This document shows positions 6,919 through 55,380 of a DNA stretch of 56,560 bases, in pieces. Every line of letters starts with the position of its first letter. Positions within the stretch are counted from its first letter, which is position 1. Source of the stretch: Meiothermus sp. (GTDB lineage Bacteria > Deinococcota > Deinococci > Deinococcales > Thermaceae). The stretch spans positions 1 through 56,560 of the forward strand of contig NZ_JANWVH010000008.1 in NCBI RefSeq assembly GCF_025056915.1, given 5' to 3'. Position numbers and translations under genes: made by a program. The notes under the pieces were generated by a model. That model was not told the DNA's origin. It worked only from the letters and a program-made list of their open reading frames with translations, and did no database searches.

Positions 6919-7923
6919 ATGAAGGTTCTGATTACGGGCGGAGCAGGGTACATCGGCAGCACCGTTGCCCACGCGCTTCTCGACACCGGCCATGTGCCGG
7001 TGCTGCTGGACTCGCTGGTCACGGGGCCCAGGGCCTTTACCCAGGGCAAGATTTTTTATGAGGGCGATATCGCCGACCGAGCGCTCCTGGAGCGCATCTT
7101 CCGGGAACACCCCGAGATCCACAGCACCATCCACTGCGCCGCGCGGATTGTGGTCCCGGAGTCGGTGCAGGAGCCCTACCTCTACTACCACGAGAACGTC
7201 TGCAAAAGCCTGGAACTGTTCAAGAACCTGGCCGAGCTGGGCTACCCCAGGGTGGTGTTCAGCTCCTCGGCCTCCATCTACGACGCCGTGCCGGGGTTCA
7301 AGGTGACCGAAACCTCGCCCCTCAAGCCCAGCTCCCCCTACGCCCGCACCAAGTACATGATGGAGATGGTGCTGGAAGACCTGTGCAAAGCCACCCCACT
7401 TCGGGGCATTGCTCTGCGGTACTTCAACCCCATCGGGGCCGACCCCAAGCTGCGCTCGGGCATCCACGTGCGCGAACCCAGCCACGTGCTGGGCAAGATG
7501 GTGGACGTGGCCCTGGGCAAGTTGCCCGAGTTCACCCTCACCGGCGTGGACTGGCCCACCCGCGACGGTTCGGGCATCCGCGACTACATCCACGTCTGGG
7601 ACCTGGCCATGGCCCATGTGAAGGCGGTGGAGCAGTTCGATGCGGTCATGCAAAAAACCAAAAGCGCCTATGTGGTGATTAACCTGGGCACCGGCCATGG
7701 GGTGACCGTGAAGGAACTGCTTGCGGCCTTCGAGCGGGTGTACGGCAAGCAGATTCCCAAGCGCGAAGCCCCGTCCCGCCCGGGTGATGTGGCCGGGGCC
7801 TACGCCAACGCCGACCGGGCCTTAGAGCTGCTGGGCTGGAAAGCCGAGCACTCCATTGACGAGGGCATCGCCAGCGCCCTGGCCTGGGGTCAGAAGCGCA
7901 GGGAAGTCCTGGGGTATGCCTAG
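6919..7923 (+). CDS. galE: UDP-glucose 4-epimerase-type SDR enzyme
   Basis: This 334-residue extended short-chain dehydrogenase interconverts UDP-glucose and UDP-galactose. It shows the NAD-binding GGAGYIGS at the N-terminus, the FSSSASIYD serine block, the catalytic SPYARTKYMME (YxxxK) and the ALRYFNPIGAD substrate loop. The C-terminal GDVAGAYANADRALELLGW is typical of GalE. The start follows a TAGAAT -10 by 7 nt and lacks a Shine-Dalgarno sequence, as expected for leaderless mRNA. The TAG stop is the first three bases of a repeat element (see 7921). Epimerases with other nucleotide sugars cannot be excluded, but GalE is the best match. Confidence 0.93.
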   Translation: MKVLITGGAGYIGSTVAHALLDTGHVPVLLDSLVTGPRAFTQGKIFYEGDIADRALLERIFREHPEIHSTIHCAARIVVPESVQEPYLYYHENVCKSLELFKNLAELGYPRVVFSSSASIYDAVPGFKVTETSPLKPSSPYARTKYMMEMVLEDLCKATPLRGIALRYFNPIGADPKLRSGIHVREPSHVLGKMVDVALGKLPEFTLTGVDWPTRDGSGIRDYIHVWDLAMAHVKAVEQFDAVMQKTKSAYVVINLGTGHGVTVKELLAAFERVYGKQIPKREAPSRPGDVAGAYANADRALELLGWKAEHSIDEGIASALAWGQKRREVLGYA

Positions 7924-7936
7924 AGCGCTCTTCACA
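7921..7936 (+). repeat. Left end of the TA-bounded short repeat (fragment)
   Basis: TAGAGCGCTCTTCACA is identical over its first 14 bases to the left end of the copies at 33252 (minus) and 9256 (minus). Its TAG is the galE stop codon. I find no matching right end downstream, so this is a truncated copy or a solo end. Confidence 0.6.
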
Positions 7937-9079: not shown

Positions 9080-9256
9080 TATCGCACTCGTCAGAGATGT
9101 GGCCGCCTGCGAAAACGAGCATGCGTATGGGCCCAGACACTTGCGACGCACCCAGGCCCGCAGGTGCTTGGGTTTTGAGTTTCCAGGCGGCCCCAGTTCT
9201 GTCCAGGACAAAGCCTTCTCAAACCCACATGGCTTAGGCGGGTGAAGAGCGCTCTA
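9080..9256 (-). repeat. TA-bounded short repeat, long copy, starting in the infC stop codon
   Basis: On the minus strand it begins TAGAGCGCTCTTCACC at the infC TAG stop. It ends with the complement of TATCGCACTCGTCA at 9080. The flanks match the copy at 33147-33252 closely (the GTCCAGGACAAAGC block is identical). About 70 extra bases are inserted in the middle, between the GCCGCC and GGCGGC arms of the internal hairpin. Confidence 0.8.
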
Positions 9257-9811
9257 AGCCGGATTGCTCGACGAAGCAGCGGGGGTTACCGGAGCCGAGG
9301 GCTTGGAGCCAGGGGCCATGACCATGTTCATGTCGCGGCCCAGCATCTCCGGGCGCATCTCCACGAATCCGATGCCTTCCAGGTCTTTAGCAATTCGTTC
9401 CAGAAGCCGGTAGCCCAGTTCCTGGTGGGCCATCTCACGCCCGCGGAACATAATGGTCACCTTGACCTTGTGGCCCTCCTCGAGGAAGCGCCGAATGTGC
9501 CCGAGTTTGGTGTTGTAGTCGTGGGCCTCGATTTTGGGCCGCAGCTTCATGCTCTTGAGTTCGGTGCGCTTGGCTTTCTTGCGGGCCTCTTTCTCGGCTT
9601 GCTGCTGCTCGTAACGCCACTTGCCATAGTCGAGCAGGCGGGCCACCGGTGGAACCGCGTTGGGCGAAACCAAAACCAGGTCGTATTCACGTTCCCTGGC
9701 CAGTCGCAGGGCATCGCGGGTGTCCACCACCCCCACCTGCGTCCCATTCTCGTCAATCAGGCGTACCTGGCGCACCCGGATACGTTCGTTCACTGGAACA
9801 TCTTTCGTTAT
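9254..9811 (-). CDS. infC: Translation initiation factor IF-3, probable AUA start
   Basis: IF-3 binds the 30S subunit and proofreads start-codon pairing. The core NERIRVRQVRLIDENG, the linker KAKRTELKSMKLRPKI and the C-domain KVKVTIMFRGREMAHQELG are diagnostic. A GTG at 9793 is the first usual start, but its Shine-Dalgarno would be 25 nt away. A perfect GGAGGTGA (9823-9816) lies 7 nt from an in-frame ATA at 9811. Starting there gives M-TKDVPVNERIR, which aligns with the M-SKDFIINEQIR start of B. subtilis IF-3. Rare starts (AUU, AUC, AUA) are a known device by which IF-3 represses its own translation. The product is 185 residues. The TAG stop is shared with a repeat. Confidence 0.93.
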   Translation of the reverse strand: MTKDVPVNERIRVRQVRLIDENGTQVGVVDTRDALRLAREREYDLVLVSPNAVPPVARLLDYGKWRYEQQQAEKEARKKAKRTELKSMKLRPKIEAHDYNTKLGHIRRFLEEGHKVKVTIMFRGREMAHQELGYRLLERIAKDLEGIGFVEMRPEMLGRDMNMVMAPGSKPSAPVTPAASSSNPA

Positions 9812-33146: not shown

Positions 33147-33252
33147 TATCGCACTCTTCAACGACGTAGCCGCCCATCCCGGCGGCCACTGTTCTGTCCA
33201 GGACAAAGCTTTCTCAATCTCGAATGGCTCAGAATACGTGAAGAGCGCTCTA
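33147..33252 (-). repeat. TA-bounded short repeat, full copy
   Basis: 106 bp. Read on the minus strand it runs from TAGAGCGCTCTTCACGTATT to GAAGAGTGCGATA, giving imperfect terminal inverted repeats (TAGAGCGCTCTTCA and TATCGCACTCTTCA) with TA at both ends. An internal hairpin has GTGGCCGCC and GGGCGGCTAC arms. It lies 27 nt beyond the CPBP protease stop codon. Confidence 0.85.
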
Positions 33253-33279: not shown

Positions 33280-34140
33280 TCAAGGCGAGGCCTGGTAGGT
33301 CTCGATCAGGGCCCACGCAAAAGCCAGCCCCAGCCCCACCAGGGTGAGCAACAGGGGCAGTGAGCGTTCCGACCCCAGGGGGGTTTTGTCTGAAGGAAGC
33401 GGGTTGCGGCGAAAGAAGAAATAGGTTAGCAAAAGGCCCACCCCCAGGAAGAACGGCGCCGCAATGGGGTCACTCGAGGGCGTCTCGGCCAGCGCACCCC
33501 CATCGCGGCTGACCCCAAGGGCCCACAACGCAAAGGGCAGCGAGTTGCCCAGCGCGTGGGCAAAAATGGTTGTCCACAGGCTGCCGCCCCGGGCGATGTA
33601 GCGCCCCCATATCAGGCCGGCCCCCAGCGCATAAAGCACCACCGCCGGCAGCACGTGGGCCAGCGCAAACACCCAGGCGCTCAGCCACACCGCCGCTCGC
33701 ACCCCATCGTTGTGGCGAAACGCCCGCAACATCCACCCCCGAAACAGGGTTTCCTCGGCCAGCGGCACCACCAGGGCCACCACCACCCACAAGGGCAATA
33801 GCTCGCCCCATCCGGCACCGGAGGGCAAGGCCAGGTTGCCCTCGGCCCTGGGCAACCAGGCAAAGGCTGCCCCGGCCAAGCACCACGAGACCGGAACGCT
33901 CCACAGCGGCAAGCCCAGCAGTTCCCGCAGGCCAGGCCGCCGAAAAAGCCGGGGTTCTTGTCGGTAGAGCCCCCGCATCAGCACCAGGCCAAAAACCAGC
34001 AGGCCTGTACCGGCCCCCATTTGCTCGAGGAAGCCCACCTCCCCGCAAAAACCCACCTGGCAGGGAATCAGCCACAACAGGGTGCCGGCTGCCGCTGCCA
34101 GGTAAAACAGCCACAGCAAGTACACCGCCCGGCTGACCAT
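33280..34140 (-). CDS. CPBP family intramembrane glutamic endopeptidase
   Basis: The 286-residue membrane protein has about eight membrane segments. The family motifs are EETLFRGWMLRAF (motif 1, double Glu), VFALAHV (motif 2) and TTIFAHALGNS (motif 3). Members include CAAX-processing and bacteriocin-immunity proteases; bacterial targets are mostly unknown. It starts 5 nt after the stop of the upstream TPR-like gene, so the two are probably translated together. The last two segments are a poorly conserved extension. Confidence 0.9.
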   Translation of the reverse strand: MVSRAVYLLWLFYLAAAAGTLLWLIPCQVGFCGEVGFLEQMGAGTGLLVFGLVLMRGLYRQEPRLFRRPGLRELLGLPLWSVPVSWCLAGAAFAWLPRAEGNLALPSGAGWGELLPLWVVVALVVPLAEETLFRGWMLRAFRHNDGVRAAVWLSAWVFALAHVLPAVVLYALGAGLIWGRYIARGGSLWTTIFAHALGNSLPFALWALGVSRDGGALAETPSSDPIAAPFFLGVGLLLTYFFFRRNPLPSDKTPLGSERSLPLLLTLVGLGLAFAWALIETYQASP

Positions 34141-34145
34141 AAAGC

Positions 34146-35135
34146 TCAGGCCTGCCCCAGCCGAAAGGGGGTTTTGTGGCCCGCAAGGGCAATCTCGCGG
34201 GCCTCCACCGGAACCCAGGAAAGCCCCAGCACGGCCTGGTAGGCGCGAAGCGCCTGGTCACGCTGGCCCATCACATCGGCCAACTGCCCATACCGGGCCA
34301 GGGTGTAGCCCGGCAGGTAGGCGGGGTGCTGAAAATCGCTGTGGACAAGCTGCTCCAGGAGTGCAAAGGCATCTTCGGCTTGCCCGGCGGCCAGGTAGAT
34401 CTGCGCCGCGCAGTAGAGGGCTTCAGGGCCGTCCACTTCCTGCAACTGCTCGAGCAAAACCGCCCAGTCGTCCGTCTCGTTGAGCTGCCAGGCCCGGTCC
34501 AGCACGCTGCGCTGGCGCTCGAGTTCGGTAGGGGTGTGGGCCCCTGGCAATTGGTACAGCCCAGCCGGCAGGTGCTCCAGCAGCAGGGGGTACTCGAGCA
34601 CATCCACCAGCACCGCCACACGCCCCCACGAACCATGCAAGCGCTCGGCCACCTGTGCCATGCGCTGCCGCCGGAAGCCGGTGGCCGGGCCTTCGCCAAA
34701 AGCCTGCACGTAGCCCTGGTGGTAGGCCCTGAGCAGTTCCAGCAGTGCTTCCTGGGCAAAATCCTCTGGGGTGCGGGGGGTGCTGAGCAGCCTTTTCAGG
34801 GATTCCTCGAGGCCCTCTACTTTGCCCAACCACTGCTGTCCCCTGGGATACTGCCCCAGGGCTTCGCGGAAGAGATCTGCTTCGGCCTTGAGGTGAGCCT
34901 GGTCGTCCAGGGCCTGCACCGCCACCCCTGCCCTTTCGGCCCAGGGCAAAACGTGAAAGAATGAGACCTCGTTCTGGTCGCGCCAGCTCTGCGCCGCCAG
35001 TTCCTCAGGGCTGTAAGAGGCCAGGACTATCTTCTCGGGCTGGTGCGCCTTGACCAGCTCGGCAATCGTCACCCCGTTGTAGCGCGGGTGCAGAATGTGA
35101 AAGGGGCCCAGTGTAGGAATGACCAAGACCGACAC
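34146..35135 (-). CDS. Conserved hypothetical protein with C-terminal TPR-like helices
   Basis: I chose the GTG at 35135 because TAGAAT ends 7 nt before it; the frame is open 10 codons further. The 329-residue protein starts (M)SVLVIPTLGPFHILHPRYNG, followed by VTIAELVKAHQPEKIVLASY. That looks like a Rossmann-type first half with a possible metal or phosphate site. The last 110 residues (YCAAQIYLAAGQAEDAFALLEQL ... YGQLADVMGQRDQALRAYQAVL) look like two or three tetratricopeptide repeats. I do not recognise the family. It precedes a CPBP protease and overlaps by 17 nt the start of a divergent MFS gene. Confidence 0.75.
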   Translation of the reverse strand: MSVLVIPTLGPFHILHPRYNGVTIAELVKAHQPEKIVLASYSPEELAAQSWRDQNEVSFFHVLPWAERAGVAVQALDDQAHLKAEADLFREALGQYPRGQQWLGKVEGLEESLKRLLSTPRTPEDFAQEALLELLRAYHQGYVQAFGEGPATGFRRQRMAQVAERLHGSWGRVAVLVDVLEYPLLLEHLPAGLYQLPGAHTPTELERQRSVLDRAWQLNETDDWAVLLEQLQEVDGPEALYCAAQIYLAAGQAEDAFALLEQLVHSDFQHPAYLPGYTLARYGQLADVMGQRDQALRAYQAVLGLSWVPVEAREIALAGHKTPFRLGQA

Positions 35136-36345
35136 GCCCGGTATTCTAGACCTCAAAGACCGCAACTACCGTTTCGCAATGCTCAATGGCTGGTTCGTGC
35201 TGTTGGGCGACGCTTTTTTTAATGGCTCGATTGTGCTGGCCTCCTTTGCCGCCAAGCTGGGGGCCCCCAACTGGGTCATTGGCCTCCTGCCCGCCCTCTT
35301 GAACGCGGGTTCCATGGTGCCCCAGGTTTTCATCGCCCCCTATGTGGCCCGCCTGCCGGTCAAGGTTACCCTCTACCGGCGCATGGCCCTTTTGCGGGTG
35401 GCCAGCCTGGGCCTGGTGGCGCTGGGCGGGTTTGCGCTGGCCCAGCGCCCCGACCTGTTGCTGTGGGTTTTTGTCATCGGGCTTGCCCTCAACGGCTTTT
35501 TTACCGGATTTTCCAGCCTGCCTTTCTGGGAGGCCATCGGCAAGACCATCCCCATGGAACGCCGCAGCGGGCTTTTCTCAGCCCGCAACCTGGTGGGCGG
35601 AGCGCTGGCTTTTCTGGCGGGCTTTGTGGTGCGCTTCATCCTGGAACTGCCGCTGGCATTCCCCTATCCCTATGCCATCCTCTTCGCGCTGGGCACGCTG
35701 GCCTTTGCCTATGGCTGGCACGTCTTTGGCCTCATAGACGAACCGCCCGACAAAGAGACCCACACCGAGCGCATCTCGCTGGGCCTGCCCTTCCGCGACT
35801 TCTACTTTCGTCGCTTCTTGCGGGTACGCGTCTTGCTGGCGGTGGCCAGCATGGTCGAACCCTTTTACGCCGCCTACGCGGTGCGGGTGCTGGGCCACAA
35901 GGGGGAAATTGGGGTATATCTGATGGTCTATACGCTATCCTCGGTGCTTTCCAACCTGCTGTGGGTACGCATCTCGAGGCGTTATGGCTCGCGCAGCCTG
36001 ATTCTGATTGGGGCGGCCCTGGGCGCTCTGGCCCCCTTGCTGGCGTTGTTGCTGCCTGGCTCGGCTTTCTGGATGGTGTTTGTGCTGCAAGGGGCCTACC
36101 TGGCCTCCATCGGGGTGGGTACTTCCACCTATCTGGTGAACCTGGCCCCCACCGATGCCCGCAGCTCCTACATCGGCCTGTCCAACACCATCGTGGGCTT
36201 GCTGGCTTTTTCGCCGGTGCTGGGGGGCTTGCTGGCCGACCGGGTGGGGTATCTGGGGCCGATGGTGGTCGCCACCCTCTCTTATGCCTGGGCCCTGTAC
36301 GCAGGCCGACGCTTGAAGCTGCTCGAGGGTGCTCTGCCACGCTAG
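35119..36345 (+). CDS. MFS transporter
   Basis: The 408-residue protein has twelve predicted membrane segments. The N-terminal signature DRNYRFAMLNGWFVLLGDAFFNGS belongs to an MFS group common in Deinococcus-Thermus. GLLPALLNAGSMVPQVFIAPYVARLP is its loop 2-3. The start is uncertain. 35119 keeps the conserved DRNYRF. An internal ATG at 35179 lies 6 nt after TACCGT, in the leaderless layout seen elsewhere. The TAG stop is the first codon of a TA-bounded repeat. The substrate is unknown. Confidence 0.88.
   Translation: MTKTDTPGILDLKDRNYRFAMLNGWFVLLGDAFFNGSIVLASFAAKLGAPNWVIGLLPALLNAGSMVPQVFIAPYVARLPVKVTLYRRMALLRVASLGLVALGGFALAQRPDLLLWVFVIGLALNGFFTGFSSLPFWEAIGKTIPMERRSGLFSARNLVGGALAFLAGFVVRFILELPLAFPYPYAILFALGTLAFAYGWHVFGLIDEPPDKETHTERISLGLPFRDFYFRRFLRVRVLLAVASMVEPFYAAYAVRVLGHKGEIGVYLMVYTLSSVLSNLLWVRISRRYGSRSLILIGAALGALAPLLALLLPGSAFWMVFVLQGAYLASIGVGTSTYLVNLAPTDARSSYIGLSNTIVGLLAFSPVLGGLLADRVGYLGPMVVATLSYAWALYAGRRLKLLEGALPR
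35143..35148 (-). promoter_or_regulatory. -10 element of a leaderless promoter
   Basis: TAGAAT on the minus strand, 7 nt before the GTG at 35135. The same bases read TATTCT on the plus strand, so divergent transcription could start here. Confidence 0.55.
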
Positions 36346-36455
36346 AGCGCGCTTCAAATGCCATGCGACTCCCAGAAAGCTTTGTGCTGAACCGCAGCCA
36401 TCCGGGCGCGCAGGGTCGGCCTGATGGGCAAAAACTTTGCTTGAAGCCTTTCATA
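36343..36455 (+). repeat. TA-bounded short repeat, diverged copy, starting in the MFS stop codon
   Basis: It starts TAGAGCGCGCTTCAAATG and ends GCTTGAAGCCTTTCATA, giving inverted ends around GCTTCAA with TA at both borders. Interior matches to the 33147 copy include GCCAT-CGA and AGAAAGCTTTGT. It is about 113 bp long and more degenerate than the others. Confidence 0.65.
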
Positions 36456-52909: not shown

Positions 52910-55291
52910 ATGACCCTGACCGAACTGATGGACACCCTTCCCTATGGCCCCGCTCCCGAGGCGGCCCAACCTGCGCTGGACTGGCTGAAGGCCCACGAGG
53001 GCCGGTTCCGGCTTTTCATTGGGGGTAAGTGGCGCGACCCGGCCCAGCCGGAGTGGTTCGCCACCCACAACCCCGCCAACGGCCAGCCGCTGGCCGAGGT
53101 CGCCCAGGCCGGTGCAGCCGATGTGGACGAAGCCGTCAAGGCGGCGCGGAAAGCCCTGGCAGGCTGGCAACAGACCCCCGGCCACCTGCGGGCCCGCTAC
53201 CTCTATGCCCTGGCCCGGCAGGTGCAGAAGCACGCCCGGCTGTTTGCGGTGCTGGAGACCCTGGACAACGGTAAGCCCATCCGCGAGACCCGCGACATTG
53301 ACATCCCCCTGGTGGCCCGCCACTTCTACTACCACGCAGGCTGGGCCCAGCTGATGGAAAGCGAGCTGCCGGGCTATGTGCCGGTGGGCGTGGTGGGCCA
53401 GATTATCCCCTGGAACTTCCCGCTTCTGATGCTGGCCTGGAAAATTGCCCCGGCCCTGGCCATGGGCAACACGGTGGTGCTCAAGCCCGCCGAGTTCACC
53501 CCGCTCACTGCGCTATTGTTTGCGGAAATCTGCCAGAAGGTCGGCCTGCCGCCGGGGGTGGTCAACATCCTCACCGGCGACGGCAGCACCGGGGCGGCCC
53601 TGGTGGCGCACCCGGGGGTGGACAAGATTGCCTTCACCGGTTCGACCGAGGTGGGGCGGCTCATCCGCAAGGCTACGGCGGGCAGCGGCAAGAAGCTCTC
53701 GCTCGAGCTTGGCGGCAAGTCGCCCTTCCTGGTCTTCGAGGACGCCGACCTCGACAGCGCGGTGGAGGGGGTGGTGGACGCCATCTGGTTCAACCAGGGG
53801 CAGGTCTGCTGCGCGGGCTCGAGGCTTTTGGTGCAGGAGGGCATCGCCGAGAAGATGTACGCCAAGCTGCGGGCCCGCATGGAAAAACTCCGCTGCGGCG
53901 ACCCGCTGGACAAGGCCGTGGATTTAGGGGCCATCGTCTCGCCGGTGCAGCTTCAAAAAATCCAGCGGCTGGTGCAGAAGGGGGTAGAAGAAGGGGCCGA
54001 ACTCTGGCAGCCAAGCTGGGCGGTGCCGAGCCAAGGGTGCTTCTACCCTCCCACCCTGTTCACCCAGGTCGCCCCGGCCTCCACCATCGCCCAGGAGGAA
54101 ATTTTCGGGCCGGTGCTGGCTGCCCTGACCTTCCGCACCCCGGAAGAAGCCGTCCGGCTGGCCAACAACACCCGCTACGGGCTGGCCGCCTCCATCTGGA
54201 GCGAGGACATCAACCTGGCCCTGGACGTCGCCACCCAGATCAAGGCCGGCACCATCTGGATCAACAGCACCAACCTCTTCGACGCGGCCAGCGGCTTTGG
54301 CGGCTACAAAGAGTCGGGATTTGGGCGCGAGGGGGGCAAGGAGGGGCTTTGGGAGTACGTCAGGAAGGCCGAAAGGCCAGGGCCAAAAGCCCAAAGCCGT
54401 AAAACCAAGGCATCGTCTAAGGCCAGAGAAACGGCCAGCCTTCAGCCTGTAGCTACTAGCCTTCGGCCTGCCATAGACCGCACCGCCAAGCTCTTCATCG
54501 GGGGCAAGCAGACCCGGCCCGATAGCGGTTACAGCCAGGCCGTGTACGGCCCGGACGGGCGTCTGGTGGGCGAGGTGGGGCTCGGCAACCGCAAGGATAT
54601 TCGCAACGCGGTGGAGGCCGCCCGCGCGGCTTTCGAGGGCTGGCGCAAGGCCACCGCGCACCACAAGGCGCAAATCCTCTACTTCCTGGCGGAAAACCTC
54701 TCCGAGCGGGCTGAGGAGTTTGCCCGCCGCCTCCAGGAACAGACCGGCGAGGACGGCGGGGCCGAGGTCGAAGCGGCCCTCGAGGCCCTGTTCGCGGCAG
54801 CGGCCTGGGCCGACAAATACGAAGGGGTGGTGCACCCTACGCCCATCCGCAACGTGACCCTGGCCCTTCCCGAGCCGGTTGGCGTGCTGGGCATTCTCTG
54901 CCCCGACGACAAGCCCCTGCTGGCCCTGGCGAAGCTGGCCGGAACCGCGCTGGCTATGGGCAACACCCTGGTGGTGGTGCCCTCGCCGGCGGCGCCCTTG
55001 AGCGCCACCGACTTTTACCAGGTGCTCGAGACCTCCGACATCCCCCCGGGCACCTTCAACATTGTGACCGGCGAGCGCGACGAACTGGCCAAAACCCTGG
55101 CCGAGCACGACGACGTGGACGCGGTCTGGTACGCCGGGCCCCAGGCCGGACACGCCCTGGTCGAGCGGGCCAGCGCTGGCAACATGAAGCGCACCTGGAC
55201 GCTGCCCGAGCGCGGGGCCCTGCCCGATACCGACGAGATTCTGCGCCAGGCCACCCAAATCAAGAACATCTGGGTTCCCTACGGGGCCTAG
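52910..55291 (+). CDS. Tandem aldehyde dehydrogenase with degenerate second half
   Basis: The 793-residue protein is two ALDH domains in one chain. Residues about 30-490 are complete: NFPLLMLAWKIAPALAMGNT, Glu266 in LELGGKSP, Cys300 in FNQGQVCCAGSR and the EEIFGPVL motif. A basic linker (about 485-525) leads to a short second domain (LFIGGKQTRPD...EPVGVLGILCPDDKPLL...NTLVVVPS). That domain stops before the catalytic block and has no Cys nucleophile, so it is probably structural. deoC lies just upstream, so acetaldehyde from deoxyribose is the likely substrate. The TAG stop opens a TA-bounded repeat. Confidence 0.92.
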   Translation: MTLTELMDTLPYGPAPEAAQPALDWLKAHEGRFRLFIGGKWRDPAQPEWFATHNPANGQPLAEVAQAGAADVDEAVKAARKALAGWQQTPGHLRARYLYALARQVQKHARLFAVLETLDNGKPIRETRDIDIPLVARHFYYHAGWAQLMESELPGYVPVGVVGQIIPWNFPLLMLAWKIAPALAMGNTVVLKPAEFTPLTALLFAEICQKVGLPPGVVNILTGDGSTGAALVAHPGVDKIAFTGSTEVGRLIRKATAGSGKKLSLELGGKSPFLVFEDADLDSAVEGVVDAIWFNQGQVCCAGSRLLVQEGIAEKMYAKLRARMEKLRCGDPLDKAVDLGAIVSPVQLQKIQRLVQKGVEEGAELWQPSWAVPSQGCFYPPTLFTQVAPASTIAQEEIFGPVLAALTFRTPEEAVRLANNTRYGLAASIWSEDINLALDVATQIKAGTIWINSTNLFDAASGFGGYKESGFGREGGKEGLWEYVRKAERPGPKAQSRKTKASSKARETASLQPVATSLRPAIDRTAKLFIGGKQTRPDSGYSQAVYGPDGRLVGEVGLGNRKDIRNAVEAARAAFEGWRKATAHHKAQILYFLAENLSERAEEFARRLQEQTGEDGGAEVEAALEALFAAAAWADKYEGVVHPTPIRNVTLALPEPVGVLGILCPDDKPLLALAKLAGTALAMGNTLVVVPSPAAPLSATDFYQVLETSDIPPGTFNIVTGERDELAKTLAEHDDVDAVWYAGPQAGHALVERASAGNMKRTWTLPERGALPDTDEILRQATQIKNIWVPYGA

Positions 55292-55380
55292 AGCGCTCTT
55301 CATAGCGAGCCTCGAGTTCGAGAAAGCCCTGAACAGAACCGTGGCTGCCCGGATGGGCGGCCACGGCGAAGAGCGCGATA
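55289..55380 (+). repeat. TA-bounded short repeat, full copy, starting in the aldehyde dehydrogenase stop codon
   Basis: 92 bp, from TAGAGCGCTCTTCATAG to GAAGAGCGCGATA. The ends are inverted (TAGAGCGCTCTTC and TATCGCGCTCTTC). An internal hairpin pairs GTGGCTGCCC (55341-55350) with GGGCGGCCAC (55355-55364) around GGAT. It has a good match to the 33147 copy in the opposite orientation. Confidence 0.85.

What the first reader, a model, noticed from the sequence alone, without database searches (positions are those of the whole stretch)
55289..55380. A TA-bounded mini-repeat that begins inside gene stop codons
Four copies of one short element (here, 9080-9256, 33147-33252, 36343-36455) and a solo left end (7921) have inverted ends: TAGAGCGCTCTTCA on the left and TATCGCACTCTTCA as the complement of the right. 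Both ends carry TA, as expected for IS630/Tc1-like MITEs that duplicate a TA target. In four of the five the left TAG is exactly the stop codon of a gene: galE, infC, an MFS transporter and the tandem aldehyde dehydrogenase. Because the element starts with G, insertion at the TA of TAA or TAG would rebuild a TAG stop. The internal hairpin may also act as an mRNA 3' end. Insertion at stops could be selected, targeted, or both.
Basis: partly seen in the sequence, partly recalled or inferred. Interest (0 to 1): 0.8.

Follow-up and report, generated by a model that had tools for sequence, protein, structure and literature searches.

The report
Mini-transposon that rebuilds stop codons
A short, high-copy mobile DNA element of Meiothermus bacteria often sits exactly inside genes' stop codons; its left end writes a new stop, so the gene survives, and this happens more often than its taste for TA sites and the loss of harmful insertions seem to explain.

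Summary
The element is a high-copy MITE-like repeat of Meiothermus: 172 left ends at <=1 mismatch in the 3.02 Mb genome, 0 for the reversed pattern. It duplicates a TA, as empty orthologous sites show. In an 802 kb sample 33 of 99 left ends are exactly a called gene's TAG stop. Of 23 such genes with an aligned relative, 19 have one stopping at the same codon: native stops were hit. Right ends cannot give a stop, and a gene runs into only 1 of 74. Expected stop share: 9% for flank-weighted intergenic TAs; observed 38%. Stops are used about 3-4 times as often as equally weighted TAs 1-60 nt downstream. Three other species show the bias, one strongly. Most follows from a YTAR target, a left end starting with G, and loss of harmful insertions; the residual is unexplained. 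Pneumococcal BOX elements are a published precedent (PMC3049150). IS630 descent was not confirmed: no DDE_3 at home, no partner in 87 transposase loci. An mRNA 3'-end role is untested.

The parts
55289..55380 (+). complete short copy; left TAG is the stop of the aldehyde dehydrogenase gene 52910-55291; right end GCGCGATA
   Evidence: the one fetched relative (L103, G013) ends the gene with TAG at the same codon without the element
9080..9256 (-). complete long copy (177 bp); left TAG is the stop of infC (9254-9793, -)
   Evidence: five of five fetched relatives stop at the same codon with TAG; empty site GCC TAG GGTTTATTTG in G015 (L123) and G003 (L126)
33147..33252 (-). complete 106-bp copy, intergenic, some 30 nt after the stop of a Rce1-like gene (33280-34140, -)
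36343..36356 (+). left end (1 mismatch) of a decayed copy; TAG is the stop of the MFS gene 35119-36345; no recognisable right end
   Evidence: the one fetched relative (G013, L142) stops at the same codon with TGA
7921..7934 (+). solo left end; TAG is the stop of the epimerase (galE-like) gene 6919-7923
   Evidence: all 17 relatives' genes listed stop at the same codon (TAG 10, TGA 5, TAA 2), TAG in the three closest, with no element at the stop (in G015, L074, and G008, L079, element ends lie tens of bases further on)

Best explanation
A non-autonomous, hairpin-forming DNA element (MITE) of Meiothermus that inserts at TA within YTAR-like tetramers and duplicates the TA. Its ends are asymmetric: the left starts with G, so an insertion into the TA of a TAA or TAG stop with the left end facing the gene writes TAG and leaves the protein unchanged; the right end (TAT or TAC) would destroy the stop. 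Insertions inside genes or with the wrong end at a stop are lost, so stop codons, which are nearly ready-made YTAR sites, are among the few tolerated places close to genes. Shown: TA duplication, native stops hit, end asymmetry, excess at stops. Inferred: loss by selection, and mobilisation by an unidentified transposase. A residual 2- to 4-fold excess over equally good TA sites just downstream remains unexplained.
For: Copy number and control. TA duplication by empty sites: infC GCC TAG GGTTTATTTG in relatives against GGCT-TA[element]TA-GGGTTCGTTTG here, and element 3 CAG TAG GCTAAAGGCTCG in G013 against CAA-TA[element]TA-GACCAAAGGCTCG. Target bias: left base T26 C12 A12 G3 of 53 non-stop copies; right base A30 G21 T5 C0 of 56 copies, stop and non-stop. 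33 of 99 left ends at stops; 19 of 23 genes with aligned relatives stop at the same codon in at least one, 16 of 23 in the closest. Exact left ends: 43 of 141 at stops over five genomes; right ends: one gene running in of 74; G013-type right ends: one of 17. A second TA-bounded repeat with C-starting ends in relatives: a gene runs into 3 of 110. Flank-weighted expectation 9.2% against 38.4% (33 of 86), or 21.2% against 52.4% (33 of 63) on the 3' side of genes only.
Against: Target taste plus loss does not account for all: 3.9-fold (1.9-8.6) over left ends and 2.9-fold (1.5-5.7) over right ends at equally weighted TAs 1-60 nt downstream; the weights rest on only 34 non-stop copies. The stop share does not rise with age when interiors only are compared (10 of 33, 8 of 33, 12 of 34; p 0.54), so slow differential survival is not seen. 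No partner transposase was found. 4 of 23 stop genes have no relative stopping at the same codon. Genes were called by my own script.
Confidence: 0.7

Rival explanations
1. Insertion is directed to stop codons: the integration machinery prefers something about translation or transcription ends, or a wider sequence context found at stops.
For: Residual 2.9-3.9-fold excess over equally weighted neighbouring TAs; youngest third of copies already 10 of 33 at stops; the same stop is occupied in two species by copies with species-typical interiors at two genes: element 43 in G000 and G003, element 67 in G000 and G008.
Against: No wrong-orientation insertions at stops are seen that would show directed insertion; by eye no preference beyond the tetramer; fast loss of other insertions would give the same picture; the share differs by species (exact left ends: G003 5 of 25, G013 5 of 31, G008 10 of 23).
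Confidence: 0.15
2. Copies at stops are kept because the transcribed hairpin right after the stop protects or ends the mRNA.
For: Two conserved helices, 94.1% of cells paired; three pairs of the inner hairpin changed on both sides in 7-8 of 28 sequences; 23 cells with a change on both sides against 5.6 in shuffles.
Against: An inverted repeat kept for transposition as DNA covaries too; cells count sequences, not events; the number of pairs with a double change is not above shuffles (4 against 3.1); no terminator-like site around the index copy; stop copies are not less diverged than others.
Confidence: 0.1
3. The stops are truncations: the element landed inside coding ends and created new in-frame stops.
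For: In 5 of 23 genes the closest relative runs 2-14 codons further (elements 10, 22, 31, 42, 44); for element 42 all five relatives run 10-14 further.
Against: 19 of 23 have a relative with the same stop position; in two of the other four (74, 87) relatives stop earlier, not later; genes running on into the left end in the other two frames are almost absent (2 'inside +' of 99; 0 of 141 exact ends).
Confidence: 0.03

Closest known systems
BOX elements of Streptococcus pneumoniae (PMC3049150, sections 6 and 9 read, further passages)
   Same: Small modular repeat of variable length; the paper reports 58 CDSs overlapping BOX, 36 at the extreme 3' end with BOX encoding the stop codon and no strong evidence of truncation.
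   Different: Different host; in the parts I read there is no test against TA sites, no codon-by-codon native-stop comparison and no end asymmetry. Sequences were not compared.
RUP of S. pneumoniae (PMC2229807, passages read)
   Same: 107-bp MITE, target with TA, inverted ends.
   Different: RUP ends match IS630-Spn1; no such partner found here. The passages mention no placement at native stops.
Correia elements of Neisseria (PMC2229807, passages; TA target recalled)
   Same: Repeats of 107 and 155 bp, size classes.
   Different: The passage reports the 107-bp class fused into reading frames, not placed at native stops.
ISTth6, an IS630 of Thermus (PMC6352166, table passage)
   Same: Related host genus; 2-bp direct repeats.
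   Different: 1000-1400 bp with its own transposase; its ends were not compared here.

Membership tests
MITE (miniature inverted-repeat transposable element) | short, high copy, terminal inverted repeats | tested here: met
   172 left ends; 56 seed copies of 90-198 bp; TIR stem of 10 pairs
MITE (miniature inverted-repeat transposable element) | target-site duplication shown by an empty site | tested here: met
   single TA in relatives at infC and element 3
MITE (miniature inverted-repeat transposable element) | no transposase of its own | tested here: met
   seed copies are 90-198 bp; the long G013 form L236 holds a 496-bp piece of another IS
MITE (miniature inverted-repeat transposable element) | ends shared with an autonomous partner | tested here: inconclusive
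   none in 87 loci of PF13358, PF13340, PF01609; draft genome, most PF13358 and PF13340 matches not fetched, other families not searched with a working control
IS630/Tc1-derived MITE | TA duplication | tested here: met
   not specific, since several PF13340 (IS5-type, recalled) copies of this genus also show TA, TNA or CTAG repeats
IS630/Tc1-derived MITE | ends match an IS630 transposon of the host or its kin | tested here: not met
   0 DDE_3 in own genome; no matching ends in the 30 loci fetched of 72 genus matches
BOX-like stop-providing repeat | repeat supplies stop codons of intact genes | tested here: met
   33 of 99 left ends, 19 of 23 native
BOX | boxA/boxB/boxC sequence modules | not tested
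   sequences not compared; different phylum

The most novel reading that the evidence does not exclude
A bacterial mobile element whose insertion machinery is biased towards translation stop codons and whose left end has been shaped to rebuild a stop, making stop codons a safe harbour like an attachment site.
Probability: 0.18. Interest if true: 0.75.

Novelty: new member of a known kind. Interest (0 to 1): 0.5.

Why it matters
It gives a measured case of how a transposable element can live next to genes at little cost: a single first base turns every TAA or TAG into a permitted site. It would change native TAA to TAG and move whatever follows the stop away by 100-200 bp. With several related species carrying and lacking copies, targeted insertion versus selection can be tested directly.

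Tried and rejected
Partner transposase: PF13358 in own genome and genus (30 of 72 matches had loci, ends scanned at <=2 mismatches), PF13340 (30 of 117 matches), PF01609 in G000, G013 and G008 (all 27). Loci reach at most 1.5 kb to each side and many are cut by contig ends. L198, L303, L313 and L320 carry an element end (<=1 mismatch) near an IS: L198 and L320 were printed and read and are separate copies beside or broken by an IS; L303 is a separate complete copy judged from its end positions; of L313 only the junction was printed. PF07592 gave nothing, but its control was silent too. L236 looked like an element with a transposase, but the insert is an internal piece of another IS630-type element.

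One 167-bp copy was sought in the plasmid and phage collections at E 0.01: no match (records near this genome may be left out there). Rfam at gathering scores: none in the window. A first age test suggested stop copies are older (p 0.008); it demanded both ends, which favours old stop copies, and the interior-only test did not confirm it (p 0.54).

Papers: no hit for Meiothermus with 'miniature inverted-repeat'; the stop-codon phrase search found none; the IS630/CTAG/stop search gave one fungal paper; I saw listings and starts of abstracts. PMC2229807 and PMC6352166: passages only. So I found no report of this element in the held library; most subscription journals are not held.

Full report
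What was checked. Three are complete copies, one is a decayed copy with a good left end (36343) and one a solo left end (7921). Four of the five left TAGs are stops of called genes: an epimerase, IF-3, an MFS protein and an aldehyde dehydrogenase. Names such as galE and infC follow from these families.

How many. The left end TAGAGCGCTCTTCA occurs 172 times at up to one mismatch in the 3.02 Mb genome, against 0 for the reversed pattern; 9 of 17 same-genus relatives hold at least five, and the 23 genomes outside the genus hold 0-6. The genus is Meiothermus: a 20-base exact piece was found in three stretches, all of Meiothermus records, and two contig lengths of G003 (115497 and 95845) equal those of M. 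hypogaeus DSM 23238. That G003 is this strain is my inference.

Anatomy. 56 seed copies have lengths with peaks at 106, 150, 167 and 197: inner arms are optional. Ends: TA-GAGCGCTCTTCACA on the left, TA-TCGCGCTCTTCACA on the right (complement); G013 has besides this a right end TA-CAGCGCTCTTCACA. 28 short forms (14 of this genome, 14 of G002, G003, G005, G008 and G013; chosen by me, other listed copies left out) fold into an end stem and an inner hairpin; three inner pairs changed on both sides in 7-8 sequences. The number of pairs with a double change (4) is not above shuffles (3.1); the number of cells (23) is (5.6).

Sample. This favours intact left ends but not stops. Genes were called by my own hexamer script, a possible source of error. 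The profile gave 121 hits; 22 lack a usable left end and 99 have one: 33 at a stop, 36 intergenic with a gene 3' end upstream, 26 intergenic with a 5' end upstream, 2 and 2 inside genes. The solo end at 7921 is not among the 121.

Native stops. 16 gene ends were sought in five relatives and stretches fetched. Of 23 stop genes with an aligned relative, 19 have one stopping at the same codon; in the closest relative 16 of 23 do (TAG 7, TGA 5, TAA 4); in five the closest relative runs 2-14 codons further and in two it stops earlier. All 17 relatives' epimerase genes listed stop at the same codon (TAG 10, TGA 5, TAA 2). Empty sites show one TA. For element 4 a relative (L144) has TAA and the flank here also reads TA-A, consistent with a native TAA turned into TAG.

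Expectation. Of 86 left ends with intact TA, 33 are at stops. Expected: 5.8% if all intergenic TAs in both orientations and free TA stops are equal; 9.2% weighted by flanking bases (bootstrap 7.4-11.0%, weights from 34 non-stop copies); 21.2% if only sites on the 3' side of genes count, observed 33 of 63. Per unit of weight, stops are used 3.9 times (1.9-8.6) as often as TAs 1-60 nt downstream by left ends and 2.9 times (1.5-5.7) by right ends. Scaling by 19/23 for doubtful stops leaves about 2.4-3.2 (my arithmetic). Other species, with this genome's weights: exact left ends G008 10 of 23 against 7.6% expected, G003 5 of 25 against 6.6%, G013 5 of 31 against 5.9% (p 3e-6, 0.02, 0.03); on the 3' side only, p 0.0003, 0.11 and 0.04. 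For G013 the expectation comes from other stretches than most of the ends. Profile-based counts in relatives were 5 stops in 29 left ends and 17 in 65 (G008 10 of 16, G003 3 of 21, G013 4 of 28).

Orientation. Right ends cannot give a stop; a gene reads into 1 of 74 right ends, 1 of 17 G013-type ends and 3 of 110 ends of another TA-bounded repeat. So stop-destroying insertions are rare or lost. This fits selection and does not exclude targeting.

Age. By interior identity to the nearest copy, the youngest, middle and oldest thirds have 10 of 33, 8 of 33 and 12 of 34 at stops. The bias is therefore present early; an earlier positive result came from demanding both ends.

Origin. No DDE_3 domain in this genome. 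None of 87 transposase loci carries these ends as its own as far as the fetched flanks show. Several PF13340 copies of the genus (IS5-type, recalled) begin with GAG and have TA, TNA or CTAG repeats (my reading of the table), so an IS5-type partner is as open as IS630.

Precedent. In pneumococcus 36 of 58 BOX-overlapping CDSs take their stop from BOX without strong evidence of truncation (PMC3049150, section 9 read). The phenomenon is therefore known in kind; the element, the native-stop test and the measured excess are what this adds.

Verdict. A new MITE family member, with a well-supported stop-rebuilding left end and a moderate unexplained excess at stops.

Noticed in passing
L225, L227, L229, L230, L234, L236-L239, L241, L244-L247, L251, L252 (G013); L255, L259 (G008); L104 (G003): Other TA-bounded repeats (TACCGGATTCAAAAAGATA / TACCAGATTCGGTTAG, and GGTCTGGTAAC forms) are nested in or beside this element, giving composites up to 811 bp; none of the first kind was found in the own-genome loci scanned.
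   Followed up: partly
L236, element of 768 bp (G013): The element holds a 496-bp piece 100% identical to the inside of a 1106-bp IS630-type element of the same genome (L184), without that element's ends: apparent capture of foreign DNA.
   Followed up: partly
L037 / L104 and L057 / L257: The same stop codon is occupied in two species by copies with different, species-typical interiors, as if hit twice. A third flagged gene (element 77, L042) could not be resolved.
   Followed up: partly
alignment A2, about columns 75-82: The hairpin loop occurs in both directions (TGGAT and ATCCA), as if inverted within the palindrome.
   Followed up: no
G000 contigs C24, C27, C32, C99, C105, C107, C131, C172: Left ends lie within about 170 bases of contig ends: the element seems to break the assembly.
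   Followed up: no
G000, 749 called complete genes of the sample: TAG is as frequent a stop as TGA (300, 302) and twice TAA (147); 33 of the TAGs are written by this element.
   Followed up: no
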